This document shows, piece after piece, positions 1 to 36,564 of a stretch of 64,000 bases of DNA. A program made the position numbers and the translations under genes. Numbering within the stretch: the stretch's first letter is position 1; each line of letters begins with the position of its first letter. This DNA is from Streptomyces sp. Tu6071 (GTDB lineage Bacteria; Actinomycetota; Actinomycetes; Streptomycetales; Streptomycetaceae). The notes beneath the pieces were generated by a model that was given only the letters and a program-made list of their open reading frames with translations, did no database searches and had not been told where the DNA came from. The DNA is taken from contig NZ_CM001165.1 of the NCBI RefSeq assembly GCF_000213055.1, positions 310,001-374,000 of the forward strand. Direction: 5' to 3'.

Positions 1-771
1 GATGGGGACACTGCTGCCGAGGGCGAGGAGGATGCCGCCCTCGACCGACAGGACGGCGAAGGCGACGCTCAGCAGCGGCAGCAGGACGGGGGAACTGGTG
101 ATCCGGGCGGCGGCGGCAGCGGGGGTGACGATCAGGGTCAGGACCAGCAGGGCGCCCACCACCTGCACCGACAGCGCGACCGCGAGGCCCAGGATCAGCA
201 TGAAGGCCAGGGACAGGGAGCGGACCGGCAGGCCGCGCGCCTCGGCGACCTCGGGGTCGGCGCTGGCGAAGGTGAGGGGGCGCCAGACCACCGCGAGGGC
301 GAGCAGGACGACGGCGGAGGTGCCGAGCAGCCATGCCGTCTGCGGCGTGTCCACGGCGACGATCTGCCCCGTCAGCAGCCCGAACTTGTTCGCCGCGCGA
401 CCCTTGTAGAGCGCGAGGAAGAGGACGCCGAGGCCGAGCCCGAACGGCATGAGGATGCCGATCGCCGAGTTCCGGTCCCTGGCCCGCGCGCCCAGGACAC
501 CGATGACCGCCGCCGCGACGAGCGAGCCGAGGAGGGAACCGGCGACGACGTTGACCCCGAACAGCAGCGCGGCGGAGGCCCCGGCGAAGGACAGCTCGCT
601 GATGCCGTGCACCGCGAAGGGCAGGTCGCGCATGATGACGAAGACTCCCACGAGCCCGCCGACGAGGCCGAGGGCCGCCCCGACGATCAGTGAGTTGCGG
701 ACGAGGCCGAGGAGTTCCCCGTAGTTGTCGTAGGCGAAGAGCTGGTGCCAGACGCCGTCTGCGAGGTTCAT
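1..771 (-). CDS. znuB: Zinc ABC transporter permease ZnuB (3' end outside window)
   Basis: This is the membrane subunit of a high-affinity zinc importer of the ABC-3 family (ZnuB/MntB/TroB). The visible 257 codons begin MNLADGVWHQLFAYDNYGEL and contain several hydrophobic helices, including the conserved MRDLPFAVHGISELSFAG region and a segment ending GALLVLTLIVTPAAAA that is typical of the family. The ATG overlaps the TGA of znuC by 4 bp (ATGA), so the two are translationally coupled. Transcription comes from the Zur-controlled promoter before znuA. The C-terminus runs off the left edge. A manganese or iron transporter of the same family is possible, but the Zur boxes and the neighbourhood point to zinc. 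Confidence 0.93.
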   Translation of the reverse strand, partial: MNLADGVWHQLFAYDNYGELLGLVRNSLIVGAALGLVGGLVGVFVIMRDLPFAVHGISELSFAGASAALLFGVNVVAGSLLGSLVAAAVIGVLGARARDRNSAIGILMPFGLGLGVLFLALYKGRAANKFGLLTGQIVAVDTPQTAWLLGTSAVVLLALAVVWRPLTFASADPEVAEARGLPVRSLSLAFMLILGLAVALSVQVVGALLVLTLIVTPAAAAARITSSPVLLPLLSVAFAVLSVEGGILLALGSSVPI

Positions 772-1676
772 CGGCGGACTCCGAGGTGCGGGTGGGGTTC
801 CTCGGGGTGGTGGGCCGGTTCCTCGTACGCGCCGGCGACCACGACCCGGCCCCCGACCCGTACGACGTCGACGTGCGTGCCGTACAGGCGCGAGAGCGAG
901 GCGGAGGTGAGGACCTCCTCGGGGGTGCCGGTGCGGTGCGCGCCGGGGGCGAGGTAGAGGACGCGGTCCACGAGGTCGAGGACGGGATTGATCTCGTGGG
1001 TGACGAAAACGACTCCGGTGCCGTGCGAGCCGCGGCGGGCGTCGATGAGTTCGGTGACGGCCCGCTGGTGGTGCGGGTCGAGCGAGACGAGCGGTTCGTC
1101 GCACAGCAGGAGGCGCGGGTCCGTGGCGAGGGCCTGGGCGACCCGTACCCGCTGGCGTTCCCCGCCGGAGAGTTCACCGAGGGGGGCGTCCGCGTAGGCC
1201 GAGGCGCCGACGGAGGCGAGGAGTGCGTCCACGCGTGCGCGGTCGGCCCGGCCGGGGCGGCGTGGGCCGAAGCGGTGGCCGTCGACGCCGAAGCGGACGA
1301 GGTCGCGGGCGCGGACCGGGGTCTGGGCGGAGATGCTCGCCTGCTGGGGGATGTAGCCGAGGTGGCGGTTGGCGCGGTGCGCGGGCTCGCCGAGGACGGT
1401 CAGGGTCCCGGCGGACAGGGGCTGCCTGCCGAGCAGGGCCCGCAGCAGGCTCGTCTTGCCCGCGCCGTTGGGGCCGAGCACGGCGAGGAACTCGCCCGGC
1501 CGGACGTCGAGTTCGAGGTCCTGCCAGACGGTGCGCCGACCGTGGGCGACGGCGCCGCCGCGCATGCTGAGCAGCGCGGCGGCGGCCTCGGCGGAACGGC
1601 TTGCGGACGTCCCGGCGGCCTGCCCGCTCGCGGCCGTGTCCGTCGTTCCGGCCCCGTTCCGGGGTTTCGGGATCAT
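768..1676 (-). CDS. znuC: Zinc ABC transporter ATP-binding protein ZnuC
   Basis: ATPase of the zinc importer, 302 aa. Walker A (GPNGAGKT), the signature LSGGERQR and Walker B with DEPLVSLD are all present, followed by the switch histidine in FVTHE. The first ~40 residues are low-complexity (Ala/Ser/Gly/Thr) and precede the nucleotide-binding domain. The ATG at 1676 is the only ATG close behind znuA (11-bp gap), although a shorter start near MRGGAVAHG is possible. The C-terminal 20 residues are His/Pro-rich (EEPAHHPEEPHPHLG), which could bind metal; that is inference. It is co-transcribed with znuA upstream and znuB downstream. Confidence 0.93.
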   Translation of the reverse strand: MIPKPRNGAGTTDTAASGQAAGTSASRSAEAAAALLSMRGGAVAHGRRTVWQDLELDVRPGEFLAVLGPNGAGKTSLLRALLGRQPLSAGTLTVLGEPAHRANRHLGYIPQQASISAQTPVRARDLVRFGVDGHRFGPRRPGRADRARVDALLASVGASAYADAPLGELSGGERQRVRVAQALATDPRLLLCDEPLVSLDPHHQRAVTELIDARRGSHGTGVVFVTHEINPVLDLVDRVLYLAPGAHRTGTPEEVLTSASLSRLYGTHVDVVRVGGRVVVAGAYEEPAHHPEEPHPHLGVRR

Positions 1677-1687
1677 CGCTGCGCCGC

Positions 1688-2641
1688 TCACTTGCCGAGC
1701 GCGTCGGCGAGGGAGTCGAGGGTCGCACCCATCCACGCGAGGTAGTCCTTGCCCCGCGGCAGGGTCTCGGTGACGGGCACCTCGGGCACCCCGGCGCTCT
1801 TCGCCGCGTCCGCGACCTTCTCGGTCTGCGGCCCGGAGGTCTGGGAGTTGTAGACGAGCGCCTTGACCTTCTTGTCCTTGTAGAGCGCGAGGGTCTCCTG
1901 GAGCACCTTCGGGGAGACGTCGTCGCCCTCCTCGATGGCCTCGCTGAAGTCCTCGGGCGTCTTGTTGACGAGCCCGGCGGCCTCGGTCATGTAGAGGGGC
2001 ACGGGCTCGGTGATGCCGATCGCCTCGCCGCCGTGCGCCTTCTTGAGGGCCGCCTCCTTGTCCTCCAGGGGCTTGAGGTCCGCCTTGAACTTCCCGGCGT
2101 TGCTCGTGAAGGTGTCCGCCTCGGCGGGGACGGCCTTGCCGAGTGCGGCGGCGATCCGGTCGGCGAGCTTGGCGACGCTCGGCAGGTCGTACCAGACGTG
2201 CTCGTTGAGTTCGCCACCGGGAGGCGCGGTCCGGCCGGAGATCTGCACGGCGTTGAGCACCTCGGCCGAGGAGTTGCCCGCGCTCTTGAGCATGCGGTCC
2301 ATGAAGTCGTCGTAGCCGCCGCCGTTCTCGACGACGAGCTCGGCCTTGGAGAGCACGAGCTGGTTGCGGGTGTCGGCCTCGTAGGAGTGCGGGTCCTGGT
2401 CCGGGTCGGAGATGAACGAGGTGACCTCGACCTTGTCGCCGCCGACGCTCTTGACGATGTCGCCGTAGACGTTGGTGGAGGCGGCGACGGTCACGGGGGC
2501 GGCGGAGCCGCCCGAGGCGGCGGGCTTGGCGTCGCCCTTGCTGTCGGAGGACGTGCCGGAGTCCGACGAGTTGCCGCAGGCGGCCACGGCGAGAAGGGAG
2601 GCGCCGGATATGAGGACGGCGAGGGAGCGGGCGGTACGCAC
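1688..2641 (-). CDS. znuA: Zinc-binding lipoprotein ZnuA (cluster A-1 solute-binding protein)
   Basis: Extracellular solute-binding lipoprotein that captures Zn2+ for ZnuBC, 317 aa. The start chosen is GTG at 2641, preceded by GGAG with a 6-nt spacer. The longer open frame upstream crosses the promoter and Zur box. The protein starts with a lipoprotein signal peptide with the lipobox Ala-Ala-Cys at about residue 17. Metal-ligand histidines typical of the family are visible in DPDQDPHSYEADT and LNEHVWYDLP. Domain two contains the LVYNSQTSGPQTE stretch usual near the last acidic ligand. The long His-rich loop of some Gram-negative ZnuA proteins is absent. It is the first gene of znuACB. Confidence 0.93.
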   Translation of the reverse strand: MRTARSLAVLISGASLLAVAACGNSSDSGTSSDSKGDAKPAASGGSAAPVTVAASTNVYGDIVKSVGGDKVEVTSFISDPDQDPHSYEADTRNQLVLSKAELVVENGGGYDDFMDRMLKSAGNSSAEVLNAVQISGRTAPPGGELNEHVWYDLPSVAKLADRIAAALGKAVPAEADTFTSNAGKFKADLKPLEDKEAALKKAHGGEAIGITEPVPLYMTEAAGLVNKTPEDFSEAIEEGDDVSPKVLQETLALYKDKKVKALVYNSQTSGPQTEKVADAAKSAGVPEVPVTETLPRGKDYLAWMGATLDSLADALGK

Positions 2642-2722
2642 AGGGGTCTCCAGAACGGGATACGGGAAAAGCGTGACGAGCGGCACCGTCCACGGAGGAC
2701 GGCGACCGCTCGTCACGCTATA

Positions 2723-2737
2723 TGAAAATGAATGTCA
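2723..2737 (-). promoter_or_regulatory. Zur box in the znuA promoter
   Basis: TGAAAATGAATGTCA is a 7-1-7 imperfect palindrome resembling the actinobacterial Zur operator. It lies 81 bp upstream of the znuA GTG. It is an AT-rich island in GC-rich DNA, and similar sequences occur before the NRPS/ligase pair and the L31 gene in this window. Repression of znuACB by zinc-loaded Zur is inferred. Confidence 0.8.
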
Positions 2738-2761
2738 CTACGACCTCCCCCCTGCCCGTAA

Positions 2762-2805: not shown

Positions 2806-4170
2806 TCAGGAGAAGCGCAGGTGGGGCGCCACGCTCAGGAGCTTTTCGCGCGTCTCCTCGAACTCCCGGGCCGGGGTGGAGACGCCCATCACCCCGGCAC
2901 CGGCCCGCAGCCACGCCCGCCCCTCGTGGACCAGGACGGTCCGCAGGACGAGCGCCGCGTCGAGCGCGCCCGCCGTGTCGGCGCGGAAGACGGCGCCCCC
3001 GTACAGGCCGCGCGGTCCCCGCTCGTGACGGCCGAGGGCGGCGAGCGCGGCTGCCTTCGGCACGCCCGTGGCGGTGATCGCGGGGAAGAGCGCGGCGAAC
3101 GCGTCCCACTCGTCCGCGCCCTCGCCGAGCCGTCCCACGACCCGCGAGGCGAGGTGCTGGACGGAGCCGCGCTCCCGCACGGCCATGAACTCCCCCACGG
3201 CCACGCTCTCCGGCGCGCACACCCGTGCCAGTTCCTCGCAGGCGAGGCGGACCGAGAGGGCGTGCTCCTGCACCTCCTTCGGGTCCGCGTACAGCTCGGC
3301 CCGCAGCCGCGCGTCCTCGACCGCGTCGCCGGTACGGGCCCGGGTCCCCGCGAGCGGCTGGGTGGAGACCCGGCCGTCCGGGGCGACCTCCACGACCGTC
3401 TCCGGGCTGAACCCGGCCGCGCGCCAGCCGCCGAGGTCGACGAGGAAGGAGCGCGCGGGCGTGTTCGCCGCCCGCCCGGCCGCGTACGAGGCACCGAGGT
3501 CGGGCGTACGGGGCAGCGGCACCGCCCGCGAGACGACGGCCTTGTCCAGCAGCCCGGCGCGGATGTCGGCGCTGGTGGCGGCCACGGCGGCGCGGTAGCC
3601 GCCCGGGTCGGCGGCGAGCAGCGCGGCGGCCTCGGGGAGCGGGGCGGGAGCGGGCCCCGTCGCGGCGGGCGTGGCCAGGACGCGTGCCGCGCGCGCGGCG
3701 GCTGCCGGGTCCACCGCGCGCACCTCCGCCTTGCCGGGCCGCAGCACGATGTCGACGGACGGGACCAGGATGCTCAGCAGGGGCTCCGTCCCGGCGCGGG
3801 CGGGGTCGCCGTGGAGGAGGTGGGCCAGTTCGAAGGCGGCCCAGCCGTGCACGGTGCGGTCCCGGGGCGAGGCCGCGCGCAGCGCCGCGAGCGCCGCCCG
3901 TACCGCCGCCAGGGGGCCCCGCGGTGCCGGGGCGTGCCAGGACCGCTCGCCGTGCCGGGCGGTGGACGCGGTGGCGGTGGCCTCGAAGGTCGCCGAGCCG
4001 GCCGCGAAGTGCCAGGCTCCGCCGTGCTCGTAGACGACGTGGTGCGCGCCGAGGCCCGACGCGGCGAGGCGGGCCGCCGCGGTGGCCGGTTCCTCGCGGA
4101 CGTCCAGGACGGCGCGGTGGGGCGGTTCGGGGAGGGACGCCGCCCAGGCGGCGAAGGGGGTGGCGCTCAT
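2806..4170 (-). CDS. Salicylate synthase (MbtI/Irp9/YbtS family)
   Basis: Chorismate-utilising enzyme that converts chorismate through isochorismate to salicylate, the aryl starter of the siderophore. At 454 aa it matches the MbtI/Irp9 single-enzyme class rather than the shorter isochorismate synthases. The anthranilate-synthase-I fold occupies about residues 180-450. It shows the catalytic-lysine region LLDKAVVSRAVPL, FSPETVVEV, QPLAGTRARTG and ITATGVPKAAAL, as in this family. No separate isochorismate-pyruvate lyase is encoded nearby, which supports a bifunctional enzyme. Its ATG overlaps the stop of the preceding ABC transporter by 4 bp. It is the last gene of the long biosynthetic operon. 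Isochorismate synthase or anthranilate synthase are less likely alternatives. Confidence 0.9.
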   Translation of the reverse strand: MSATPFAAWAASLPEPPHRAVLDVREEPATAAARLAASGLGAHHVVYEHGGAWHFAAGSATFEATATASTARHGERSWHAPAPRGPLAAVRAALAALRAASPRDRTVHGWAAFELAHLLHGDPARAGTEPLLSILVPSVDIVLRPGKAEVRAVDPAAAARAARVLATPAATGPAPAPLPEAAALLAADPGGYRAAVAATSADIRAGLLDKAVVSRAVPLPRTPDLGASYAAGRAANTPARSFLVDLGGWRAAGFSPETVVEVAPDGRVSTQPLAGTRARTGDAVEDARLRAELYADPKEVQEHALSVRLACEELARVCAPESVAVGEFMAVRERGSVQHLASRVVGRLGEGADEWDAFAALFPAITATGVPKAAALAALGRHERGPRGLYGGAVFRADTAGALDAALVLRTVLVHEGRAWLRAGAGVMGVSTPAREFEETREKLLSVAPHLRFS

Positions 4171-6002
4171 CGGGCGGCTCCGGGGTCGGGGGTGCGGGAG
4201 GGTGCGGGAGGGGGCGGCGAGGGGCTCGTGTCGTGGTCCCCGGCGGTCTTCGCCGAGGTCAGGCGCCAGCCGTGCGCGCGCGTGCGGCTGCGCCAGAAGC
4301 CCGCGTAGGTGCCGCCGTGGGCGAGCAGTTCCTCGTGGGTGCCGCGCTCGGCGATCCGGCCCCGCTCCAGGACGAGGATGCGGTCGGCGTCGCGGATGGT
4401 GCTGAGGCGGTGGGCGATGACGAGCACCGTCTTGTGCCGGGCGAGGGCGCGGACGGTCGCGACCAGGTGGGCCTCGTTCTCCTGGTCGAGCGAGGCCGTG
4501 GCCTCGTCCAGGACGAGGACGGGCGCGTCGCGCAGCAGCGCGCGGGCGATCGCGACGCGCTGCCGCTCGCCGCCGGAGAGCGCGGTGCCCTCGGGGCCGA
4601 CCCGTGTCGCCCAGCCCTCCGGGAGCCGGGTGAGCACCCGGTCGAGCCCGGACAGGCGGGCGCAGTCGCGCAGTTGCTCCGCCCCGGCTCCCGGTTTCCC
4701 GGCCAGGACGTTCTCCTCCACGGTCCCGTCGAAGAGGTACGTGTCCTGGAAGACGGGCGAGACGGTGGCGGCGAGGACGTCGGGCGCCATGTCGCGCACG
4801 TCCACGCCGCCGATCGTGACGCTGCCGCCCGTCACGTCCCAGAACCGCGCGAGCAGCCGTGCCACGGTGGTCTTCCCGGCACCGGAGGGCCCCACGAGGG
4901 CGGTGACGCTCCCCTCCGGCGCGGTGAACGCGACACCGCGCAGGGTGCCCGCGGCGGCGCCGTCGTCGGGGTCCGTGCCGGAGGCGTACGAGAAGTCGAC
5001 GTCGTGGAAGCGCACCGAGTAGCCGTCGGGGACGCGCGGCTCGGCGGGCACGGGGAAGGGCGGCTCGTCGAGCAGTGCGGCGACGTGCTCCAGGCTGTGC
5101 CGGGCGACGCGCAGCCCGGCCCCGAGGTCGGCCGCCGCCGAGACGCCCTCCGTGAGCCGCGCGGTGAGGACGAGCAGCGCGAGGAGCGTCGGCACGTCGA
5201 GCGAGCCGTCGAGCGTCCAGTGGACGGTGAGGACCAGCACGGTCGCGAGGACGGCGCGGGCGACGAAGGCGAAGGCGACGAGGCCGGGGACGCCCCGGGT
5301 GATCAGGCGCCGGTCGGCGCGCGCCTCCGCGGCCAGGGCCTCGTCCAGGGCGCCGTGGTCCTCGGAGGTACGCCCGAAGGCCCGCAGGACCGGCTGGTTC
5401 CGCGTGTACTCCATGACCCGCTCGGCGGCCTCCGCGCCCGCCGCGTCGCGGCCCCGGTCGAGGCGGGCCACCACGGCGGTGCTCGCCCGGTGCGCCGCCA
5501 GCAGGACGGGGAGGGAGGCGAGGAGGACGCAGCCGACCCGTACGTCGAAGCAGAAGGAGGCCGCGACGAGGACGGCCGGGGTGACGACGGCCGAGACGAG
5601 CGGGCGCAGCAGGTGGGCGGGCATGTTCATGACCTGCATGACGCCGGGGCCGGCGATCCTGGCCAGTTCGGCGGCACGGCCGCCGGAGAACCAGCCGACC
5701 GGCAGCGTGAGCGTGTGGTCGGCGAGCCGCCGGTGCAGCGCCCTGGACAGTTGCCCGCCGACGGTGAACCCGCCCGCGAGCGCCGCCGCCTGAGCGGCCG
5801 TGAAGGCGGCGGTGACAGCGGCGAGTGCGAGCAGCCAGGGCCACACCGCATCGGGCGAGCCACCGAGCAGCGCGCGCAGCACGGGCACGAGGAGCGCGAA
5901 GGCGAGGCCCTGGAGGACGGCGGCGGCGAGGAGCACCGCGAGGAGCCGGCGCAGCGGCCGGTACCCCTCGGCGCCGAGGACGTGACGGAGCAGGCGGATC
6001 AT
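4167..6002 (-). CDS. ABC half-transporter, siderophore type (YbtQ/IrtB-like)
   Basis: Fused membrane/ATPase half-transporter, 611 aa. An N-terminal six-helix ABC-exporter-fold domain (about residues 15-310) is followed by a nucleotide-binding domain with GPSGAGKTT, LSGGERQR and DEATASLD. A Ser/Pro-rich tail of about 40 residues follows the last helix. In yersiniabactin and mycobactin systems such pairs (YbtPQ, IrtAB) import the metal-siderophore complex despite their exporter fold, and the same is inferred here for the zincophore. It probably works as a heterodimer with the product of the preceding gene. Both ends overlap neighbours by 4 bp. Export of the product is the main alternative. Confidence 0.88.
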   Translation of the reverse strand: MIRLLRHVLGAEGYRPLRRLLAVLLAAAVLQGLAFALLVPVLRALLGGSPDAVWPWLLALAAVTAAFTAAQAAALAGGFTVGGQLSRALHRRLADHTLTLPVGWFSGGRAAELARIAGPGVMQVMNMPAHLLRPLVSAVVTPAVLVAASFCFDVRVGCVLLASLPVLLAAHRASTAVVARLDRGRDAAGAEAAERVMEYTRNQPVLRAFGRTSEDHGALDEALAAEARADRRLITRGVPGLVAFAFVARAVLATVLVLTVHWTLDGSLDVPTLLALLVLTARLTEGVSAAADLGAGLRVARHSLEHVAALLDEPPFPVPAEPRVPDGYSVRFHDVDFSYASGTDPDDGAAAGTLRGVAFTAPEGSVTALVGPSGAGKTTVARLLARFWDVTGGSVTIGGVDVRDMAPDVLAATVSPVFQDTYLFDGTVEENVLAGKPGAGAEQLRDCARLSGLDRVLTRLPEGWATRVGPEGTALSGGERQRVAIARALLRDAPVLVLDEATASLDQENEAHLVATVRALARHKTVLVIAHRLSTIRDADRILVLERGRIAERGTHEELLAHGGTYAGFWRSRTRAHGWRLTSAKTAGDHDTSPSPPPPAPSRTPDPGAAR

Positions 6003-7879
6003 GGGCGCGTGACCTTCCGGGGGCCGGTGGGGCGGGGCAGCGGGGTGTCCGGGCCGGGAGGCGGTGACGCTCCGGGAGTCGGGTCGGCCCCCGTGCCGGA
6101 CGCAGCGTCCCCGGCGGGAGCCGCCGCTTCGTCCGGTGCCGTCTCCTCGGCCCGTGCGTGCCACAGCCGCGCGTACCGCCCTCCCGCCGCGAGGAGTCCG
6201 GCGTGCCGGCCGCTCTCGGCGATCCGGCCCTCGTCGAGGACGACGATGCGGTCGGCGTCCGTCACGCTCGTCAGGCGGTGCGCCACGACCAGGACGGTGC
6301 GGCCCGCCGCGAGCGTGGAGAGCGCGTCCTGGACCAGCGCCTCGGTGTACGGGTCGGCGTACGCGGTCGCCTCGTCGAGCACCAGGACGGGGGCGTCGGC
6401 GAGGAGCGCGCGAGCGATCGACACGCGCTGGGCCTCGCCCCCGGAGAACCGCGCGAGGGTCCCGACCTCGGTGGCGTAGCCGTGCGGAAGCGCCGTGATC
6501 ATCTCGTGCGCGTGGGCGGCGCGGGCCGCGCGCTCGACCTCCTCGTCCGTCGCGGACGGCCGCCCGAGGCGGATGTTGTCCGCGACGGAGGCCCGCAGGA
6601 GCCGTACGTCCTGGAGGACGAAGCCGACCGAACGGTAGAGCGCGGCGGGCGGGATGTCGCGCACGTCGGCGCCGCCGATCGTCACGGCCCCGCCCGTCAC
6701 GTCGTGGAAGCGCGCGAGGAGCGCGGCGAGCGTGGACTTCCCCGCGCCCGAGGGGCCCACGAGCGCGGTGACCGTACCGGGGGCGAGGTCGAGGTCGACG
6801 CCCGCGAGCACGTCGCGTTCGCCGTCGTACGAGAACGACACGTCGCGGAAGGAGACGTGCGCGCCCGCCGGGAGTGCCGGGCGGGCCGGGGCCGGGAGTG
6901 CGGGCGTGGCGAAGAGCGCGGAGACGCGGGTGGCCGCGGCCTGCCCGCCGCGGATCTGCTGGACGCGGGTGCCGACGACGCCGAGCGGCGCGGCGAGCGC
7001 CGGGCCGAGCAGGACGAAGGCGAGCAGCGACGCCCCGGAGAGGTTCCCGGAGACGAGGAGCGGGGCCCCGGCGGCGAGGAGCAGCAGCAGTACGAGGGCG
7101 GGTGAGACGACGAGCAGCGCCGCCGTGGAGGGCACGAGCGTGGACCGTACCCAGGACGTGAAGAAGGCGGCGAAGGCGTCGGTGGCGGTCAGGAAGCGCT
7201 CGTGGGCGGTGCGGGCGCGGCCGAAGGCGCGTACGACCGCGATCCCTTGGGCGTACTCGGCCGCGGCGGCCGAGACGCGGCCGAGCGCGGTGCCGAACTC
7301 GGCCATCCGCGCCTTGGCGCCCGCCATCGCGCGGCGGAAGAGGAGGGCCCCGGCGAGCGGGGGGAGGAGGGCGAGGAGCGCGAGGCGCCAGTCGGCGGCG
7401 GCGAGGACGCCGAACGCGACGAGCGGCGCCACGAGAAGCGCCGTCACGTCGAGCAGGGTGTGCGCGACGAGGGCGTGCAGGGCGTGCACGTCGTCCCGCA
7501 CGGCGCTCTCGATCTCGTCGCGGCGGTGGGTGATCGTGCCGAGCGGCAGGCGGCCGACGTGGTCGGCGAGCCGACGCCGCAGGAAGAGCTGGAGGTCGTT
7601 GTCGGCCTGGTGGGCGAGGAGTCCGGCGGCGAAGGCCAGAGCGAGCGCGGCGACGCCGGAGGCGCAGGCGAGGCTCACCCACGGCCACACGTCGGCGCCC
7701 GCCCGGCCGTCGCCGGTGAGGCGGGCGGCGAGCCGGGCGATCGCGAGGAGCGGGACGACGCCCGTCGCGGCGGCGCACGCCTGGAGCGCGACGGCCACCA
7801 GGAGGCGCCGCCGCACGGGCGCGGGCAGGGCGAGCGCGGACGCGGGCGACACGTTTCGGGGAGGGGGAGGAGGTGTCAT
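5999..7879 (-). CDS. ABC half-transporter, siderophore type (YbtP/IrtA-like)
   Basis: Partner half-transporter, 626 aa, with six predicted membrane helices in about residues 25-310 and a C-terminal ATPase domain. Walker A GPSGAGKS and Walker B/D-loop DEATAYADP are clear. The signature is FSGGEAQRVS rather than LSGGQ, and the D-loop departs from ASLD, so the two half-transporters are not identical ATPases. One ATP site of the predicted heterodimer may therefore be weaker. There is no siderophore-interacting (FAD) domain of the kind mycobacterial IrtA carries. The C-terminal ~40 residues are Ala/Pro/Gly-rich. The start ATG at 7879 overlaps the methyltransferase stop. The role inferred is zincophore transport. 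Confidence 0.87.
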   Translation of the reverse strand: MTPPPPPRNVSPASALALPAPVRRRLLVAVALQACAAATGVVPLLAIARLAARLTGDGRAGADVWPWVSLACASGVAALALAFAAGLLAHQADNDLQLFLRRRLADHVGRLPLGTITHRRDEIESAVRDDVHALHALVAHTLLDVTALLVAPLVAFGVLAAADWRLALLALLPPLAGALLFRRAMAGAKARMAEFGTALGRVSAAAAEYAQGIAVVRAFGRARTAHERFLTATDAFAAFFTSWVRSTLVPSTAALLVVSPALVLLLLLAAGAPLLVSGNLSGASLLAFVLLGPALAAPLGVVGTRVQQIRGGQAAATRVSALFATPALPAPARPALPAGAHVSFRDVSFSYDGERDVLAGVDLDLAPGTVTALVGPSGAGKSTLAALLARFHDVTGGAVTIGGADVRDIPPAALYRSVGFVLQDVRLLRASVADNIRLGRPSATDEEVERAARAAHAHEMITALPHGYATEVGTLARFSGGEAQRVSIARALLADAPVLVLDEATAYADPYTEALVQDALSTLAAGRTVLVVAHRLTSVTDADRIVVLDEGRIAESGRHAGLLAAGGRYARLWHARAEETAPDEAAAPAGDAASGTGADPTPGASPPPGPDTPLPRPTGPRKVTRP

Positions 7880-19355: not shown

Positions 19356-19359
<4 letters not shown>

Positions 19360-26127: not shown

Positions 26128-26142
26128 TGAAAATGATTATCA
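26128..26142. promoter_or_regulatory. Zur box in the divergent NRPS / salicyl-AMP ligase promoter
   Basis: TGAAAATGATTATCA, a 7-1-7 palindrome with one mismatch between half-sites, lies in the 187-bp region between the NRPS start (26027, minus) and the ligase start (26215, plus). It sits in the only AT-rich stretch there (26120-26155). It is the best of the four boxes in the window. One operator could repress both directions when zinc is plentiful. Confidence 0.88.
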
Positions 26143-27938: not shown

Positions 27939-29471
27939 CTACGCGGAACGGCCGTGTTCCGGCCCCGTCGCCCGTCTCCGCCCCACCAGCGCCTTCGTGG
28001 CGGGATGGCGGGGCTGCCGGAGCACCTCCCGCGCGGGTCCCGACTCCACCACCCCGCCCGCGTCCAGGACGACGACGCGGTCCGCGCAGCGCGCGACGGC
28101 CGCGAGATCGTGCGAGACGAGGACCAGCGTCACCCCGTCCGCACGGCGCAGTTCGTCCAGCAGGTCCACGATCCCGCGCGCCGTGTCCGGGTCGAGCGCG
28201 GAGGTCACCTCGTCGCACACCAGCACCCGTGGCCCCGCCGCGAGGGCGCGCGCGAGCGCGACGCGCTGCCGCTCCCCGCCCGAGAGGGCACCCGGCCGCC
28301 GCGCGAGCACCCCGGCGCCGAGACCGACCCGGGCGAGCAGCGCGCGCGCCTCGGCCGCCGCCCGGTCCGGGTCGAGCCCGCGCAGGGCGGTGAGAGGACG
28401 GGTCAGGGCGCGCTCGGCCGTCTCTCTCGGATTGAGCGCCCCGTACGCGTCCTGCGCCACCAACTGCACGGCCGCAGCGCGCCCTTGGCGGATCGCCCCC
28501 GGCTCCTCCCAGGCCACGGTCCCGGCGGCCGGGCGCAGCAGTCCGGCAAGGACGCGCGCCAGGGTCGTCTTCCCGGCCCCGGAGGGACCGAGCACGGCGG
28601 TGCACGTCCCCGGGGCCACCGTCAGGGCGACGTCCCGCAGCACGGGCGCGCCCCGTCCGGGCGCCGCGAAGAGCCCCGACGCACGGAGCCCTCCCGCACG
28701 CGGCGCGGCGCGGTCCGTGTCCCTCTCCCGCCCCGCACCCGGCCCGGCGGCCCACACGGCGCGGGGCGCCCCGCGGGCCACGATCCGCCCCGCCTCCAGC
28801 CGCAGGGCCTCGTCCGCGAGCGACCCGACCCATCGCGGGTCGTGGCTGACGAGCACGACGGACCGCTCCTCCTCGCGCACCGTCTCCTCAATCAACTCCC
28901 GCAGCTCCCAGGCGAGTCCGTCGTCGAGTCCGGCCGTCGGCTCGTCCAGCACGAGCAGTCGCGGCGCCCTCGCGAGCGCCGCGGCCAGCGCCACGCGCCG
29001 CGCCTGCCCGCCGGACACCTCGTGCGGGCGGCGCCGCAGGAAGACCCGGTCGTACGGCAGCCGGACGCGGGCGAGCAGTTCCGCGACCCGCTCCGGCGCC
29101 GCCGTGCGCGGCACGCCACCGCGCCGCACGGCGTCCGCGAGGTGCGCGCCGATCCGCCGCGCCGGATTGAGGGACGCCGCTGGGTCCTGGCCCACGTACG
29201 TGACGAGCCGCCCCCGCACCCGCCGCGTGCCTCCCGGGGCGAAGGGGTCGGTGCCCGCGACGCGCACCCGTCCCGCCCGCAGGCCGAGCCCCGGCCGTAC
29301 GTGCCCGAGCAGCGCGAGCGCCAGACTGCTCTTGCCCGAACCCGAGCGGCCCACGACCCCCAGGACGCGGCCCGCCGCGAGCGTGAGGCTCGCGTCCGCG
29401 AGGACGGGCGCTCCCCCGCCGACCGGGCCGAGCGTGAGCCCTTCCACGCACACCGGCTCCGTATCCGTCAC
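27939..29471 (-). CDS. Fused two-domain ABC ATPase, peptide/nickel type (DppD-DppF fusion)
   Basis: 510 aa with two complete nucleotide-binding domains in one chain. NBD1 has GRSGSGKSS, the shortened signature VSGGQARRVAL and DEPTAGLDD. NBD2 has GPSGAGKTT, LSGGERQRVAL and DEVTSALDP. The C-terminal tail (HPATKALV) is typical of peptide/nickel transporter ATPases. The start chosen is GTG at 29471 because GGAGGAG lies 5-7 nt upstream. An alternative GTG at 29579, coupled to the permease stop as GTGA, would add 36 low-complexity residues encoded by a tandem repeat. It is the last gene of an importer operon and converges on the AMP ligase with a 50-bp gap. It energises uptake of a peptide-like or metallophore substrate. 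Confidence 0.9.
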   Translation of the reverse strand: MTDTEPVCVEGLTLGPVGGGAPVLADASLTLAAGRVLGVVGRSGSGKSSLALALLGHVRPGLGLRAGRVRVAGTDPFAPGGTRRVRGRLVTYVGQDPAASLNPARRIGAHLADAVRRGGVPRTAAPERVAELLARVRLPYDRVFLRRRPHEVSGGQARRVALAAALARAPRLLVLDEPTAGLDDGLAWELRELIEETVREEERSVVLVSHDPRWVGSLADEALRLEAGRIVARGAPRAVWAAGPGAGRERDTDRAAPRAGGLRASGLFAAPGRGAPVLRDVALTVAPGTCTAVLGPSGAGKTTLARVLAGLLRPAAGTVAWEEPGAIRQGRAAAVQLVAQDAYGALNPRETAERALTRPLTALRGLDPDRAAAEARALLARVGLGAGVLARRPGALSGGERQRVALARALAAGPRVLVCDEVTSALDPDTARGIVDLLDELRRADGVTLVLVSHDLAAVARCADRVVVLDAGGVVESGPAREVLRQPRHPATKALVGRRRATGPEHGRSA

Positions 29472-29509: not shown

Positions 29510-29581
29510 CGTCACCCCCGCGTACCGCCTCACCGCCGCTCACGGCGTCACCCCCGCATACCGCCCCGCCGCCGCTCACGC
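29510..29581. repeat. Two 36-bp imperfect tandem copies at the permease/ATPase junction
   Basis: Copies at 29510-29545 and 29546-29581 differ at only a few positions; each starts CGTCACCCCCG and ends CGCCGCTCACG. On the minus strand each copy contains a GTGAGCGG start-like motif, so the duplication created a second possible start and overlaps the permease stop at 29576-29578. Confidence 0.75.
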
Positions 29582-30415
29582 CGTCGCACCCGTTGCCGCG
29601 TAGCGGTCGGCGAGCAGGCCCACGCACACCGCGAGGGTCACGAGCAGGAGGGTGGGCAGGAGGAACGGCAGGACCGTGAACGAGGCACCGGCCAGGTTCT
29701 CGCTCACCATGCGCCCCCAGTCCGGTGCGGCGCCGCTCCCGCCGAGCCCGAGGAAACCGGCTGTCGCGGCGAGGTGGAGCGAGGCGACGAAGCGCAGGCC
29801 GGCCTCCGTGAGCGCGGTCCCCGCGAGGTTGGGCAGGATGTCGTGGCGGGCGACGCGCAGCGCCCCGTCCCCGCGCGCCCGTGCCGTCTCGACGTACCCG
29901 GTGGACACGACGCGAGTGGTCGCCGCGCGCAGCACGCGTACCGAGAACGGCGCGGTGGCCAGCACGACCGCGAGGACCGTGGCCAGGTCGCTGCCGGGAA
30001 AACCCGCCGCGAGCACGAGGACGAGCAGCAGCGGCGGTACCACCGCGAGGACGTCGAAGAGCCGCTGCACCCCTTCCCCCACCCGTGCCGGGAGCAGCCC
30101 GGCGAGCACGCCCGCCGCACCGCCCACCGCACTCGTGAGCAGCGTGGCGCCGCCCGCCGTCAGCACCATCCGGCGTCCGCCGCACAGCACCCGGCTCAGC
30201 ACGTCGCGCCCCAAGGCGTCGGTCCCGAGGGGCAGTCCGGGTGCCGGTCCCCCGTACGCGGCTCCCACGCGCGCCTGCGGGTCGTGCGGCGCGAGGAAGG
30301 GTCCCAGGAGCGCGAGGCCGAGCACGAGGAGGGCGCCCGCCGCCGCGAGCCACGGCAGCACGGCGCGGGGGCGCGGCCCGGCACGTCCGGCTCGTTCCAC
30401 GACCGTCCCGCTCAT
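29576..30415 (-). CDS. ABC permease, DppC/NikC-like
   Basis: 279-aa inner-membrane permease of the peptide/nickel family. An N-terminal helix is followed by the periplasmic element LGTDALGRDVLSRVLCGGRR, the hallmark of DppC/NikC subunits. The cytoplasmic EAA loop appears around YVETARARGDGALRVARHDILPN. Five or six hydrophobic helices are visible. ATG at 30415 overlaps the stop of the DppB-like permease by 4 bp. It pairs with that protein to form the channel for the solute-binding protein encoded upstream. Confidence 0.9.
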   Translation of the reverse strand: MSGTVVERAGRAGPRPRAVLPWLAAAGALLVLGLALLGPFLAPHDPQARVGAAYGGPAPGLPLGTDALGRDVLSRVLCGGRRMVLTAGGATLLTSAVGGAAGVLAGLLPARVGEGVQRLFDVLAVVPPLLLVLVLAAGFPGSDLATVLAVVLATAPFSVRVLRAATTRVVSTGYVETARARGDGALRVARHDILPNLAGTALTEAGLRFVASLHLAATAGFLGLGGSGAAPDWGRMVSENLAGASFTVLPFLLPTLLLVTLAVCVGLLADRYAATGATA

Positions 30416-33010: not shown

Positions 33011-33241
33011 TCAGTGCGTCGTGCCGTCGTGCAGGGTGATCGCCCCGGAGGGGCAGCGGTGGCGCGCCTCGCGGACGGAGGGCAGCAGCGCGGCCTCGGG
33101 GCGCGCGTCGAGGAGCCGTACGAGGCCGTCCTCCTCGTCCTGGTCGAAGACCTCGGGGGCGGCGAGCACGCACTGCCCGGCGCCCACGCACACCTCGGTG
33201 CGCGCTTCGACCCGCGGCCGGGGACCGCCGGGCGTGCTCAT
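33011..33241 (-). CDS. [3Fe-4S] ferredoxin
   Basis: 76 aa. The cluster ligands are Cys18 and Cys24 in [15 protein letters not shown] and Cys63 in RHRCPSGAI. With only three cysteines this is the [3Fe-4S] type that serves actinobacterial P450s. The start ATG at 33241 overlaps the stop of the COG0523 gene by 4 bp; the longer upstream open frame lies inside that gene. It is the only ferredoxin gene seen in the window, so it is the likely electron donor to the P450 at 9478-10695, even though about 22 kb separates them. Confidence 0.9.
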
Positions 33242-34419
33242 CGCCACCGCCCCACGAGCGGCGCGTGCGCGTACGGCTCGGCGCAGACCTCCGCGGTGTC
33301 CCAGGCGGGGAAGGGGTCCTCGGCGGGGACCGGTTCGCCCTCGCCGAGGAGGCACTCCGTCAGGGCCGCACGGAGTGCGTCGGCCCTCAACTCCGTTCCG
33401 ATGAGGACGATTTCCTGCGCGTGGGGCACGTCCCGGTCGCGGACGGCGGAGGGCTCGAAGCGGGCCACCGCCCCCGCCTGCGACCACAGGCCCGTCACGT
33501 CCTCGCGCCCGCCGAGGGTGAAGAAGCCCTTGGAGCGCAGGACTCGCCCGTACCGGCCGCTGTCGATGCCCTCCGTGACGAACTCCCACAGCCGCCCGGG
33601 CTGGAAGGCGGCGGGTGAGCGGAAGACGAGCGAGGAGATGCCGTACTCCTCCGTCTCCGGGACGTGCTCCCCGTTCAGCTCCCGCACCCAGCCGGGCGCC
33701 TCCTGGGCGCGCGCGAGGTCGAAGCGCCCGGTCGCGAGCAGTTCCCGCAGCGGCACCCGGCCCCGCACCGCCGGAAGGAGGCGAGCCCGCGGATTGAGCC
33801 GGGCGAGGACCCCGCGCAGCCGCTCCGCGTCCCGCTCCCCGACCAGGTCCAGCTTGTTGAGCACGAGGACGTCCGCGAACTCGACCTGGTCCACGAGGAG
33901 ATCGCTCACCGTGCGCTCGTCGTCCCCGTACGCGGCGAGTCCCCGTTCGGCGAGGTCGTCGCCCGTGTCCAGCTCGGCGAGGAAGTTCCTCGCGTCCACG
34001 ACGGTGACCATCGTGTCGAGCCGCGCCACCTCGCCGAGGCTCGCCCCGTCGTCGCGCGCGAAGGCGAAGGTCGCGGCGACCGGCAGGGGCTCGGAGATCC
34101 CGCTGGACTCGATGAGGAGGTAGTCGAAGCGCCCCTCGCGGGCGAGGCGGTCCACCTCCGTGAGGAGGTCGTCCCGCAGCGTGCAGCAGATGCAGCCGTT
34201 GGTCATCTCGACCAGCCGCTCCTCGGTGCGGGACAGCGCCGCCGGGCCGCCCCGGACGAGCGCCGCGTCGATGTTCACCTCGCTCATGTCGTTGACGATG
34301 ACGGCGACCCGCAGCCCCTCGCGGTTGTCGAGCACGTGCTGGAGCAGCGTCGTCTTGCCCGCGCCGAGGAAGCCGGAGAGTACGGTCACGGGGAGCGCGT
34401 GCGCGGCCACCGCGCTCAC
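33238..34419 (-). CDS. COG0523 (CobW/ZNG-like) GTPase, putative zinc chaperone
   Basis: 393-aa G3E GTPase. The P-loop is [10 protein letters not shown] at about residues 15-24. The zinc-binding motif of the family, GCICC, follows the switch region ([16 protein letters not shown]). The base-recognition motif is VLNKLDL. The CobW C-terminal domain covers the last ~100 residues. The start is GTG at 34419, coupled to the L32 stop as GTGA; the longer open frame crosses L32. COG0523 proteins of the Zur regulon are thought to deliver zinc to essential enzymes during starvation. Linkage to cysteine-free ribosomal proteins and a Zur box supports that. Confidence 0.9.
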
Positions 34420-34586
34420 TCCTCGGGGCGCAGCAGGCCGCGCCGGTAGGCCGCCACGAGGTGCTGCGGCACGCGGTGGGCGACTCCGTCCACGGTGACG
34501 GTGACGAGCTTCGGGGCGCTCGCCTTCCACTGCGCCCTGCGGTGACGGGTGTTGGCGCGGGATGTTTTGCGCTTGGGGACGGCCAT
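34416..34586 (-). CDS. rpmF: Ribosomal protein L32, cysteine-free (zinc-independent) paralogue
   Basis: 56 aa, starting [20 protein letters not shown], the conserved N-terminus of bacterial L32. The C-terminal half carries no cysteine at all ([17 protein letters not shown]), whereas the zinc-binding form has Cys pairs there. Such C-minus paralogues replace the zinc protein when zinc is scarce. The ATG at 34586 follows GGAAAGG. The stop overlaps the COG0523 GTG by 4 bp, so the two are translated together. Location in the Zur-box-headed operon fits. Confidence 0.93.
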
Positions 34587-34644
34587 GAGGCTGCCTTTCC
34601 GGGGTGGGGATGCGGGGTGTGCGGGTGTGGCGGCGGGGCGCGGA

Positions 34645-34667: not shown

Positions 34668-34705
34668 CGTCGGGTGCGGCTCAGCGACCGCCGCCGCTCA
34701 GGGGC

Positions 34706-34945: not shown

Positions 34946-34992
34946 GGGGAGGGCTCCTTGGTGCGGGGCGGCGGCGGTGAGCGGCGGGTGGT

Positions 34993-35068
34993 GGTCGGCG
35001 GCAGACGTGACGTTCAGCGGCAGTCGTGGCGGTCGGCGGCAGACGTGGCGGTCGGCGGCGGTCAGTGG
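34993..35068. repeat. Four 19-bp tandem repeats
   Basis: Units at 34993-35011, 35012-35030, 35031-35049 and 35050-35068 follow the pattern GGTCGGCGGCAGACGTGGC with a few changes each. The array fills most of the spacer between the S18 gene and the second COG0523 gene and overlaps that gene's last codons. Confidence 0.8.
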
Positions 35069-36222
35069 ACGGGGTCGAGGAACTGGTCGAACGAGGCCGG
35101 GAACTCCTTCCACGCCTCCGTGCCACCCGCCATCTCGGCGTCGGTGAGCACGCAGGAGGCGAGGAGGCCGGCGATGCCCTCGCGGTCGAGGTCCGGCGAG
35201 GTGAAGACGAGGTACTGCTCGCGGTCGCCGTGCTCGGGGTCCCAGTCGAGCGCGGCGGCGGCCCGGCGCAGCGGGGGGACGAGTTCCCAGGCCGCGTCCG
35301 GCAGTCCGCGCAGCCAGGGCCCGGACGTCTCGACGCACAGCGCGCCCCCGGCCGCGTCCCAGTGCAGCAGCGTGTCGGGCCGGTCGGCGAGCCAGAACCG
35401 GCCCCGGCTGCGTACCGCCGCGCAGCACAGCTCCTCCAGCGCCTCGAAGAGGCGTCCGGGGTGGAAGGGGCGGCGGTGCCGCCAGACGAGCGTGCCGATC
35501 CCGGCCTCGTGCGCCTCCTGCGGAAGAAGCGCCATCGCCGGGTGTTGCGCCGCCGCGGCTGCCTCGGTGTCGAAGCCCGCCCGGAGCAGTCCGGGCAGTT
35601 CGGGGGAACCGAGGGGCAAACGCCGTGCGGTGGGGTGCAGTTGCGCGAGCAGGGCGAGGTCGTCCGGGGCGTTTTCGCCGTCCTGACCGGCGAGTACGAG
35701 GACGCCCGGGTACTCCAGCTGCCGGGCGAAGGTGTCCCCCACGGTGCGCTCGTCCGTGGGCGCGGCGGCGAGACCCGCCTCGGCGAGTTCGTCGCCGTTG
35801 CCGAGGCAGGCCAGGACGAGCGCGGGATCGACGGCGGTCAGCACGTTGCCCAGCCGCAGCGACTCCCCCGCGTGCGCGACGACGACCTCGGCCATCGCGC
35901 GCGGTTCGACGGAGTCCCACAGCTCCACGACGGCGAGGCGCGTCGAGCCGTCGCGTGCGAGGCGCCGCAGCTCGGGGACCAGGTCCTCGCGCAACGCGCA
36001 GCACGCGCAGTCGTTGACGAGCGGCGTCTCGCCGGTGGCGAGCGTGCCCGAGGCGTCGCGCAGTTCACGCACGACCGCTCCGGAGGGGGCGTCGCGCAGG
36101 TCGTGGTGGAGCACGACGCTGCCGGGCACGACGCGCAGCAGGTGGGCGACGGTCCTCGCCCGCGCCTCGGCGTGGATGCCCGCCACCAGCACGACGGGCA
36201 GCGGCGCGTCCCCGGCCGTCAT
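35062..36222 (-). CDS. COG0523-like protein with a degenerate P-loop
   Basis: 386 aa, with the overall layout of a G3E/CobW protein: the metal motif CACC in [14 protein letters not shown], a family-like middle region and a C-terminal CobW-like domain ([27 protein letters not shown]). The position of the P-loop reads [18 protein letters not shown], without the GxxGxGKT pattern, and NKxD is replaced by LAGQDGE. GTP hydrolysis is therefore doubtful. It may be a metal-binding partner of the intact COG0523 GTPase nearby. ATG at 36222 overlaps the L31 stop by 4 bp. The gene belongs to the Zur-box-headed operon. Confidence 0.85.
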
Positions 36223-36473
36223 CGGCCGGCCCCTCGCCCATAGCGCCGCTCGAAGCGCTCGACCCGCCCGGCGGCGTCCACGACGCGCGCGGTGCCGGTG
36301 TAGAAGGGGTGGCTCGCGGAGGAGATCTCGACATCGACCACCGGGTAGGACCGGCCGTCCTCCCACTCGACGGTCCGCTCGCTCGTCAACGTCGAACGGG
36401 TCAGAAAGGCGAAGCCCGCCGCCCGGTCGCGGAAGACGACGGGGCCGTACGGGGGGTGGATTCCGGTTTTCAT
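36219..36473 (-). CDS. rpmE2: Ribosomal protein L31 type B (zinc-free)
   Basis: 84 aa. It has the type B hallmarks [16 protein letters not shown] at the N-terminus and [11 protein letters not shown] near the C-terminus, and lacks the CxxC of zinc-binding L31. The start ATG at 36473 has GAAGGA 5 nt upstream. Type B L31 displaces the zinc-containing form under zinc limitation and is a classical Zur target. It is the first gene after the Zur box at 36550 and is coupled by a 4-bp overlap to the degenerate COG0523 gene. Confidence 0.95.
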
Positions 36474-36549
36474 GGCTGTCCTTCGTGCTTGCTGAGGCCC
36501 TGCGGGGCCGCCGCGAGGCCAGGTGTGGCGCGGCGCGGAAGACAGCATA

Positions 36550-36564
36550 CGACAATGGTTTTCA
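36550..36564 (-). promoter_or_regulatory. Zur box upstream of rpmE2
   Basis: CGACAATGGTTTTCA reads TGAAAACCATTGTCG on the minus strand and is extended by TTA. It is a 7-1-7 palindrome with a good TGAAAA half-site, 77 bp before the L31 start. It probably controls L31, COG0523, S18, L32 and the genes behind them. Confidence 0.78.

What the first reader, a model, noticed from the sequence alone, without database searches (positions are those of the whole stretch)
1..36564. A single Zur-linked zinc island: importer, zincophore, chaperones and zinc-free ribosome
The first 36 kb combines znuACB, a salicyl-capped NRPS siderophore-type pathway, a second metal/peptide importer, two COG0523 proteins and cysteine-free L31, S18 and L32, headed by Zur-box-like palindromes. 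Zinc acquisition, zinc sparing and zinc delivery are normally scattered in genomes; here they are contiguous. The locus resembles coelibactin loci (Streptomyces coelicolor), so the product is probably a zincophore rather than an iron siderophore. Coupling with the ribosomal paralogues makes this a near-complete zinc-starvation programme.
Basis: partly seen in the sequence, partly recalled or inferred. Interest (0 to 1): 0.85.

Follow-up and report, generated by a model that had tools for sequence, protein, structure and literature searches.

The report
Zinc-starvation island with zincophore genes
A Streptomyces chromosome carries, side by side, the genes to make and import a probable zinc-scavenging molecule, a zinc importer and a set of zinc-free spare ribosome parts, plus (just outside the window) an unusual second zinc-sensor gene.

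Summary
The window carries znuACB, a complete coelibactin-type cluster, a peptide/metal importer, a ferredoxin, two COG0523 proteins and Cys-free L31, S18 and L32. Zur-box matches (11/11, 10/11, 9/11) precede all three transcription units. The island continues left of the window: S14, L28 and L33 without CxxC, another Zur box, and a Fur-family gene. About 38 kb therefore holds six zinc-free ribosomal paralogues, the importer, the probable zincophore, a chaperone and a regulator. Microbispora siamensis has nearly the same island. Coelibactin's Zur control is published, and a Mycobacterium zinc island is a precedent, so this is a new variant of a known kind. Two corrections: one COG0523 protein is P-loop-less and MRF-like, probably acting on ribosomes; and zinc specificity of the product is inferred, because coelibactin has never been isolated. 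The most novel element is the linked regulator 'Zur2'. It has lost the main zinc-sensing M-site but keeps the D-site in the 120 best of 260 homologues, resembling the cyanobacterial Zur design.

The parts
1..771 (-). znuB, zinc ABC permease; runs off the window (whole gene at genome C1:309863-310771)
   Evidence: PF00950 E 6.5e-40
768..1676 (-). znuC, zinc ABC ATPase
   Evidence: PF00005; operon context
1688..2686 (-). znuA, zinc-binding protein
   Evidence: PF01297 E 2.9e-50
2723..2737 (.). Zur box 10/11, upstream of znuA
2806..4170 (-). salicylate synthase
   Evidence: TIGR03494 420.8 bits, cut-off 325
4167..6002 (-). ABC exporter half
   Evidence: PF00664/PF00005; syntenic in relatives
5999..7852 (-). 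ABC exporter half
   Evidence: PF00664/PF00005; syntenic in relatives
7876..8604 (-). methyltransferase
   Evidence: PF13649; 80-85% identical in coelibactin-level loci
8669..9481 (-). stand-alone thioesterase (Ser type)
   Evidence: PF00975 E 1.9e-50; GHSMG
9478..10695 (-). cytochrome P450, CYP105N1 orthologue
   Evidence: PF00067; best PDB 3tyw E 1.9e-199
10692..12677 (-). thiazolinyl-imine reductase fused to a methyltransferase
   Evidence: TIGR01761 345.6 bits, cut-off 188.8; YbtU 4gmf
12674..13846 (-). saccharopine-dehydrogenase-like protein
   Evidence: PF03435
13843..19359 (-). NRPS2: TubC dock-C/Cy-A(MT)-PCP-TE; TE has Cys nucleophile GYCLGG
19356..25997 (-). NRPS1: carrier-Cy-A-PCP-Cy-A-PCP (Cy by DxxxxD motif)
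26128..26142 (.). perfect Zur box 11/11 in the divergent NRPS1/ligase promoter (overlapping 9/11 site at 26134)
26215..27888 (+). salicyl-AMP ligase
   Evidence: PF00501; TIGR02275 614.9 bits, below its cut-off 723.6
27939..29447 (-). double ABC ATPase (DppDF-type)
   Evidence: PF00005, two stretches
29576..30361 (-). DppC-type permease
   Evidence: PF00528
30412..31365 (-). DppB-type permease
   Evidence: PF00528
31362..32954 (-). SBP_bac_5 binding protein (probable metallophore importer)
   Evidence: PF00496 E 3e-62; NikA/CntA-like models below cut-off
33011..33247 (-). ferredoxin (SCO7676-type)
   Evidence: PF06902/PF13370
33238..34419 (-). COG0523 no. 2, ZigA-like GTPase with P-loop, CICC and NKLD
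   Evidence: NF038288 505 bits, cut-off 600
34416..34586 (-). L32 without cysteine
   Evidence: PF01783
34706..34945 (-). S18 without cysteine
   Evidence: PF01084; C+ copy elsewhere
35062..36222 (-). COG0523 no. 1, MRF-like, without P-loop
   Evidence: NF047431 233 bits, cut-off 375
36219..36473 (-). L31 type B without cysteine
   Evidence: NF002462 130.9 bits, cut-off 86
36550..36564 (.). Zur box 9/11 heading the L31-to-importer operon

Best explanation
This is a Zur-repressed zinc-starvation island of about 38 kb (genome C1:308462-346564) in a Streptomyces. When zinc falls, Zur leaves four boxes and four units are derepressed. (1) L31, MRF-like protein, S18, L32, ZigA-like chaperone, ferredoxin and the SBP/Dpp importer. 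(2) The coelibactin-type pathway from its divergent promoter: salicylate synthase, ligase, two NRPSs, tailoring enzymes and exporters. (3) znuACB. (4) S14-L28, and divergently L33-Zur2. The cell then exports a salicyl-capped azoline zincophore and takes up its complex through the Dpp-type importer, imports free zinc through ZnuACB, replaces zinc-ribbon ribosomal proteins to release zinc, routes zinc through the ZigA-like GTPase and may park C- ribosomes through the MRF-like protein. The linked Fur paralogue Zur2, which lacks the main zinc-sensing site, probably adds a second regulatory threshold. Shown: genes, order, motifs, boxes, conservation. Inferred: regulation in this strain, operon structure, product structure and metal, importer substrate, MRF-like and Zur2 functions.
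For: Gene content. Zur boxes before every unit. Box of 9/11 or better upstream of NRPS1 in 23 of 33 loci, own included, against 108 of 1309 other gene starts in the same stretches; no Fe-box-like site of 14/19 or more in 79 kb. CYP105N1 as best PDB match and a Cys-nucleophile TE, the same in 16 of 16 related loci scanned. Nearly the same island in Microbispora siamensis; zinc genes beside the cluster in several other lineages. C+ counterparts of S18, L31 and S14 elsewhere in the genome. Coelibactin promoters bound by Zur in S. coelicolor (PMC5472717); DmdR1 iron boxes not recovered in that cluster (PMC12161575). Zinc induction measured in the analogous MAP island.
Against: No expression data exist for this strain. 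The product has never been isolated in S. coelicolor, and the product of a coelibactin-like myxobacterial cluster binds Fe and is iron-regulated. The zinc neighbours are not universal: at 40% identity or more none was seen in the fetched flanks of the coelibactin-level loci G001, G005, G007, G008, G140, G158 and G217, nor of the more distant G009, G010, G011, G017, G020, G027, G062 and G173. The 9/11 boxes before L31 and before L28/L33 are weak on their own, and a 10/11 match also occurs inside znuB. The NRPS1 promoter of Sphaerisporangium has a 13/19 iron-box match beside its 9/11 Zur box.
Confidence: 0.85

Rival explanations
1. The cluster makes an iron siderophore that merely sits beside zinc genes; the island is a general metal-stress region.
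For: Salicyl-azoline chemistry is typical of iron siderophores (YbtU-like reductase). Sorangibactin from a coelibactin-like cluster is iron-repressed and forms an Fe adduct (PMC10127202).
Against: Perfect Zur box in the divergent promoter; best iron-box match there 8/19 and none of 14/19 or more in 79 kb. Zur box in 23 of 33 loci. Repeated neighbours are zinc genes.
Confidence: 0.1
2. The cluster is zinc-regulated, but its product is a broad metallophore (Zn, Cu, Ni, Fe) or a signal affecting antibiotic production rather than a dedicated zincophore.
For: SBP_bac_5 resembles NikA- and CntA-type binding proteins, below their cut-offs. Coelibactin expression abolishes antibiotic production in S. 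coelicolor (PMC3430247). Staphylopine is described as broad-spectrum in vitro (PMC8000910).
Against: Physical linkage with ZnuACB and zinc-sparing ribosomal genes argues for zinc as the main cargo.
Confidence: 0.25
3. The linkage is incidental: several independent Zur operons happen to lie together through gene loss and shuffling, with no selection for one island.
For: Order and content differ between lineages, and many relatives have the cluster alone. A second type-B L31 and a second C- L33 lie elsewhere in this genome.
Against: Microbispora has six C- proteins, COG0523, importer, cluster and znuABC together. Nocardiopsis, S. harbinensis, S. triticirhizae and S. griseoaurantiacus show other combinations. 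G032 keeps most zinc genes although the biosynthetic core is largely missing.
Confidence: 0.12
4. Zur2 is a decaying or dominant-negative duplicate of Zur without sensing function.
For: Three of four M-site ligands are lost, and ScZur without M-site zinc cannot bind target DNA (PMC8000910).
Against: D-site ligands in 120 of 120, structural Cys in 119 or 120 of 120, Arg at position 85 in 118 of 120: purifying selection. Functional precedent in SynZur, which also lacks that site (PMC9337993).
Confidence: 0.25

Closest known systems
Coelibactin gene cluster of Streptomyces coelicolor (SCO7676-7692)
   Same: Ferredoxin, four transporter genes, two NRPSs, CYP105N1, two ABC exporters where the published legend names them (PMC3430247), and the whole order of the S. 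coelicoflavus locus; Cys-type TE; Zur box in the divergent promoter
   Different: Here flanked by six C- ribosomal genes, two COG0523 genes, znuACB and Zur2; its cluster lies outside the main Streptomyces coelibactin clade
Zinc-responsive genomic island of Mycobacterium avium ssp. paratuberculosis (PMC4298942)
   Same: One region combining C- L31, L33, S14, S18, COG0523 proteins, Zn/Mn ABC importer, Fur-family gene and an NRPS locus; zinc-responsive
   Different: About 90 kb; different NRPS genes (sidA/B) and importer (mpt); also ESX-3, PPE and lipid genes; ZnuABC lies elsewhere
Microbispora siamensis island (L112-L114)
   Same: L32, S14, L28, L31, L33, S18, COG0523, ferredoxin, transporter, coelibactin-type cluster and znuABC within 96.7-135.0 kb of one contig
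   Different: znuABC inverted and separated from the cluster by two genes; no Zur2 match in the 60 kb; one COG0523 gene, without CxCC
ScZur (3mwm) and SynZur
   Same: Zur2: homologous to ScZur, with its structural Cys4 and D-site; absent site 2 with Arg at the SynZur Arg78 position
   Different: Loses three ScZur M-site ligands; D-site is His3Glu rather than SynZur Asp-His2-Cys; coexists with a canonical Zur in the same genome
Mycobacterial MRF (Mpy recruitment factor)
   Same: COG0523 protein encoded with C- ribosomal genes; NF047431 best family match
   Different: 233 bits against a cut-off of 375; P-loop and NKxD absent

Membership tests
Coelibactin gene cluster | Gene order ferredoxin / four transporters / ligase / NRPS / NRPS / SDH-like / reductase / P450 / TE / MT / two exporters | tested here: met
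   against the S. coelicoflavus locus and against the figure legend in PMC3430247, which names only some genes; S. coelicolor itself was not fetched and SCO7691-7692 were not compared
Coelibactin gene cluster | CYP105N1 orthologue | tested here: met
   best PDB match 3tyw/4fxb, E 1.9e-199, next best 2.4e-99; that 3tyw/4fxb is CYP105N1 is recalled
Coelibactin gene cluster | TE domain with Cys nucleophile | tested here: met
   GYCLGG at NRPS2 residue 1615; feature from PMC10127202
Coelibactin gene cluster | Zur-controlled divergent NRPS/ligase promoter | tested here: met
   11/11 box; sequence only, binding not tested
Coelibactin gene cluster | Product structure and zinc binding | not testable with these tools
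   product not identified in S. coelicolor
Zinc-responsive genomic island (MAP type) | Contiguous C- ribosomal genes, COG0523, Zn importer, metallophore, Fur-family gene | tested here: met
   likeness of layout only, common descent not tested
Zinc-responsive genomic island (MAP type) | Zinc-dependent transcription | not testable with these tools
   no expression data
Zur, canonical (ScZur type), for Zur2 | Structural Cys4 site | tested here: met
Zur, canonical (ScZur type), for Zur2 | M-site (C79, H85, H87, D65) | tested here: not met
   R79, R85, Y87; D65 kept. C79/H87 as M-site and H84/E105 as D-site from PMC11077047 and PMC6103462; H85, D65 (M) and H86, H122 (D) recalled
SynZur-type (site 2 absent, site 3 sole sensor), for Zur2 | Three of four site-2 ligands absent, Arg at the Arg78 position, site-3 ligands present | tested here: met
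   PMC9337993; position equivalence by the constant offset of 7 between the structural Cys
SynZur-type (site 2 absent, site 3 sole sensor), for Zur2 | Zinc-dependent DNA binding through site 3 | not testable with these tools
   needs protein work
MRF (NF047431), COG0523 no. 1 | Score above the NCBIfam cut-off | tested here: not met
   233 against 375 bits
ZigA (NF038288), COG0523 no. 2 | Score above the NCBIfam cut-off | tested here: not met
   505 against 600 bits; P-loop, CICC and NKLD present
Salicylate synthase (TIGR03494) | Score above the cut-off | tested here: met
   420.8 against 325 bits

The most novel reading that the evidence does not exclude
The island carries, and is partly governed by, a second zinc sensor of a class that the papers seen here describe only in cyanobacteria: Zur2, in which the canonical hinge zinc site is replaced by Arg/Tyr residues and the D-site is the sole regulatory zinc site. 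It coexists with canonical Zur in the same Streptomyces. The two sensors would give the zinc-starvation programme two set-points, for example separating zincophore production and ribosome exchange from simple zinc import. Nocardiopsis loci carry the complementary type: in 6 of 6 cluster-linked paralogues the M-site ligands are kept and E105 of the D-site is lost.
Probability: 0.45. Interest if true: 0.75.

Novelty: new variant of a known kind. Interest (0 to 1): 0.62.

Why it matters
If right, one stretch of DNA contains nearly the whole bacterial answer to zinc hunger, which makes the hierarchy between scavenging, import and ribosome exchange testable with a few promoter and deletion experiments. 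Recurring linkage of coelibactin-type clusters with zinc-sparing genes in separate actinomycete lineages is independent evidence that the never-isolated coelibactin is a zincophore. The linked Zur2 family offers a natural two-sensor system and an actinobacterial counterpart of the cyanobacterial D-site-only Zur.

Tried and rejected
Iron-siderophore reading: tested with a 19-bp iron-box consensus (recalled, not from a call); no site of 14/19 or more in 79 kb. Chance reading of the boxes: rejected for the intergenic ones, but 5 of the 9 window matches are intragenic and probably chance, and one of the three perfect genomic matches (3823217) falls at the start of rplI, judged coincidence. The shuffle used a shortcut that undercounts slightly; one search is the proper one. 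In one search I computed a Fisher test of 7 of 22 against 0 of 58 loci for zinc-gene linkage; the 22 had been chosen partly because they showed such genes, so it is circular and I do not use it. A Fur tree put all 125 Zur2-type tips in one clade, but with support 0.31 and with tips chosen by similarity, so monophyly is not claimed. NRPS specificity codes were not derived (the pattern found no A5 motif). The two structure-prediction jobs and the fold searches were not used. S. coelicolor itself was not fetched. The place of the fourth Zur box stands as 309044 in my notes (entry 2); read it is 309046.
Full report
What was checked. The window lies at C1:310001-374000 of a 7.5 Mb genome in two contigs. 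Close homologues of two island proteins are named Streptomyces in databases, so the host is taken to be a Streptomyces.

Regulatory sites. S. coelicolor Zur binds tGaNNatSatNNtCa (PMC5472717, passages read). The window has a perfect match at 26128 between NRPS1 and the divergent ligase, 10/11 at 2723 before znuA and 9/11 at 36550 before L31. With up to 2 mismatches 9 sites occur against 0.72 expected; 5 of these, including a 10/11 match at 126, lie within genes. The genome has 73 sites with at most 1 mismatch (reversed-pattern control 11) and 3 perfect ones: this one, one before a second cysteine-free L33, and one at the start of rplI that I regard as coincidence. Because the genes behind each box are co-directional with gaps of at most 128 bp, three boxes can serve all genes of the finding. 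Operons are inferred.

The part outside the window. Left of the window lie S14 (308462-308767, minus), L28 (308767-309003, minus), a 9/11 Zur box at 309046, L33 (309074-309238, plus), a Fur-family gene (309311-309739, plus) and the rest of znuB. None of the three ribosomal proteins has a CxxC motif; L28 and L33 have one cysteine each. The whole island is thus 308462-346564. C+ copies of S18, L31 and S14 lie elsewhere. The C- S18 and C- S14 of the island are the only such copies found; a second type-B L31 exists at 6971864 and a second C- L33 at 3350872. L28, L32 and L33 were not searched for genome-wide. A canonical znuA-znuC-znuB-zur locus lies at 5.484-5.488 Mb.

Biosynthetic cluster. Gene order equals that of the S. 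coelicoflavus locus and agrees with the published coelibactin legend for the genes that the legend names (PMC3430247, passages and legend read). The P450 is closest in the PDB to 3tyw/4fxb (CYP105N1; recalled), E 1.9e-199, next best 2.4e-99. The reductase matches YbtU and TIGR01761 above cut-off, and the salicylate synthase TIGR03494 above cut-off. The NRPS2 thioesterase has a cysteine nucleophile, as reported for coelibactin and sorangibactin (PMC10127202, passages read); the motif scan found it in 16 of the 16 related loci given to it. In a tree of five concatenated proteins from 21 loci the window's cluster falls outside the Streptomyces coelibactin group (separating branch 1.00); its exact place is unresolved, supports 0.45 and 0.79.

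Relatives. One genome-contig scan gave 80 loci. Eight have NRPS1 identity of 62% or more (L003-L008, L011, L060). I examined wider stretches of these 8, of 14 further named loci chosen partly because one search showed zinc genes beside them, and of the 10 congeners that, besides the own genome, carried the SDH-like gene at E 1e-60 or better among 199 genomes searched. Microbispora siamensis has L32, S14, L28, L31, L33, COG0523, S18, ferredoxin, SBP/Dpp, the whole cluster and znuABC in 38 kb. Among the eight closest, 4 have zinc genes nearby: Microbispora; S. coelicoflavus (ZigA-like COG0523, L32, and importer genes at 28-38% identity to znuACB); S. griseoaurantiacus (znuABC and Zur2, on a 38-kb contig); Actinoallomurus (importer genes at 25-36% identity and two Fur-family genes). 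The other 4 showed none at 40% identity or more. Among the 10 congeners 3 do (G212, G059, G135), with G174 and G135 on short contigs. Nocardiopsis loci add S14, L28, S18, COG0523 and another Fur paralogue in varying sets. G032, identified as Streptomyces sp. SPB074 by its contig length, keeps S14, L28, L33, Zur2, znuBCA, L31, COG0523 no. 1, S18, L32 and ferredoxin at 80-96% identity, but COG0523 no. 2 was not found, the transporter genes appear in pieces, and most of the NRPS and tailoring genes are missing between NRPS1 and znuA; an assembly fault cannot be excluded. A box of 9/11 or better lies upstream of NRPS1 in 23 of 33 loci (own included), against 108 of 1309 other gene starts in the same stretches (Fisher p 3.6e-17, with related loci not independent). 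The 10 misses include G174 and G135, whose NRPS1 is cut short, and G020 and G021, whose box sits beside the ligase.

The linked regulator, Zur2. It is 49.6% identical to ScZur over the aligned core (3mwm E 4.9e-33), while the canonical Zur of this genome is 82% identical and has all M- and D-site residues. Against ScZur, Zur2 has lost C79, H85 and H87 of the M-site and keeps D65, the D-site ligands H84, H86, E105 and H122, H36 and the structural cysteines. In the 120 best of 260 homologues (own included), C79 is replaced in 120 (Arg in 118), H85 is Arg in 118, H87 is Tyr in 113 and kept in 7, and all four D-site ligands are present in 120; these were picked by similarity to the query. Among 199 genomes of the genus, own included, 26 have 28 genes of this type at E 1e-37 or better. 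For 26 of the 28 the motif was printed, H-R/Q-HY in all 26. In about 1.5 kb on either side, 11 of 28 (the island itself included) have a C- ribosomal protein, COG0523 or Znu protein at 60% identity or more, and 26 of 28 have at least a weaker sign (a COG0523 or permease match at 34-43%, or only a box of 9/11 or better, which is weak by itself); L210 and L222 have none. M-site zinc is required for ScZur to bind DNA (PMC8000910, passages). Cyanobacterial SynZur lacks that site, senses through a site at the D-site location and has Arg78 between two site ligands (PMC9337993, passages). By the constant offset of 7 between the structural cysteines, Arg78 equals position 85, which is Arg in Zur2. Hence the proposal that Zur2 senses zinc through the D-site alone. 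Six of 6 Nocardiopsis cluster-linked paralogues show the opposite pattern: C79, H85, H87 and D65 kept, E105 lost.

COG0523 proteins. No. 2 has P-loop, CICC and NKLD and matches ZigA (505 of 600 bits needed). No. 1 matches MRF best (233 of 375 bits needed) and lacks P-loop and NKxD; in the 120 best of 3310 homologues a P-loop pattern occurs in 2, NKxD in 0 and CxCC in 119. In 8 linked copies, own included, P-loop and NKxD are absent in 8, but CxCC is present in only 4: Microbispora and three Nocardiopsis lack it. In mycobacteria MRF, encoded with C- ribosomal genes, recruits a hibernation factor to C- ribosomes under zinc starvation (PMC13418864, passages). A ribosome role for no. 1 is therefore more likely than zinc delivery, but membership is not claimed.

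What is known. Zur control of coelibactin, C- ribosomal genes and znuABC in S. coelicolor is published (PMC5472717, PMC6103462; passages). A contiguous zinc-responsive island with C- ribosomal genes, COG0523, importer, Fur gene and NRPS genes is published for M. avium ssp. paratuberculosis (PMC4298942: abstract, part 1 of section 8, section 9). Searches in the open library showed in their listings (40 of 49 papers, 20 of 24) no title or abstract start on a coelibactin cluster inside such an island or on a D-site-only Zur outside cyanobacteria; subscription papers are not covered.

Verdict. The island is real, zinc-directed by its boxes and content, and more complete than reported. As a kind of thing it is a variant of known zinc regulon clustering; the linked Zur2 family is the part most likely to surprise.

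Noticed in passing
genome C1:309311-309739 (262 bases left of window start at its nearest end): Fur-family paralogue Zur2 with M-site ligands lost and D-site kept; a conserved type in Streptomyces, often next to zinc genes.
   Followed up: yes
genome C1:3350872-3351036: A second cysteine-free L33 with a perfect 11/11 Zur box just upstream, away from the island.
   Followed up: partly
genome C1:6971864-6972100: A second type-B, cysteine-free L31 outside the island; no Zur box of 9/11 or better in the 3.2 kb held.
   Followed up: partly
L240-L241 (G127 C1:1185924-1198512): Another congener has L28, L33, L31, MRF-like COG0523, S18, L32 and Zur2 next to genes that look like FecCD-type ABC parts and large CobN- and ChlI/ChlD-like proteins (guessed from sequence starts, not scanned): a zinc island with another module in place of coelibactin.
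   Followed up: no
L233-L235 (G032 C2:215677-234811): Sister locus keeps most flanking zinc genes, but COG0523 no. 2 and most NRPS and tailoring genes are missing; natural loss or assembly fault.
   Followed up: partly
Nocardiopsis loci L122-L127, L152-L160, L173-L175: Cluster-linked Fur paralogues that keep the M-site residues but have lost D-site residue E105 (6 of 6), opposite to Zur2.
   Followed up: partly
window 35062-36222: P-loop-less COG0523 protein; in its 120 best homologues 118 have no P-loop pattern and 119 have CxCC.
   Followed up: yes
window 36772-37527 and 38180-41190: DUF3592 protein and an ABC/FtsX pair right of the island; no sign that they belong to it.
   Followed up: no
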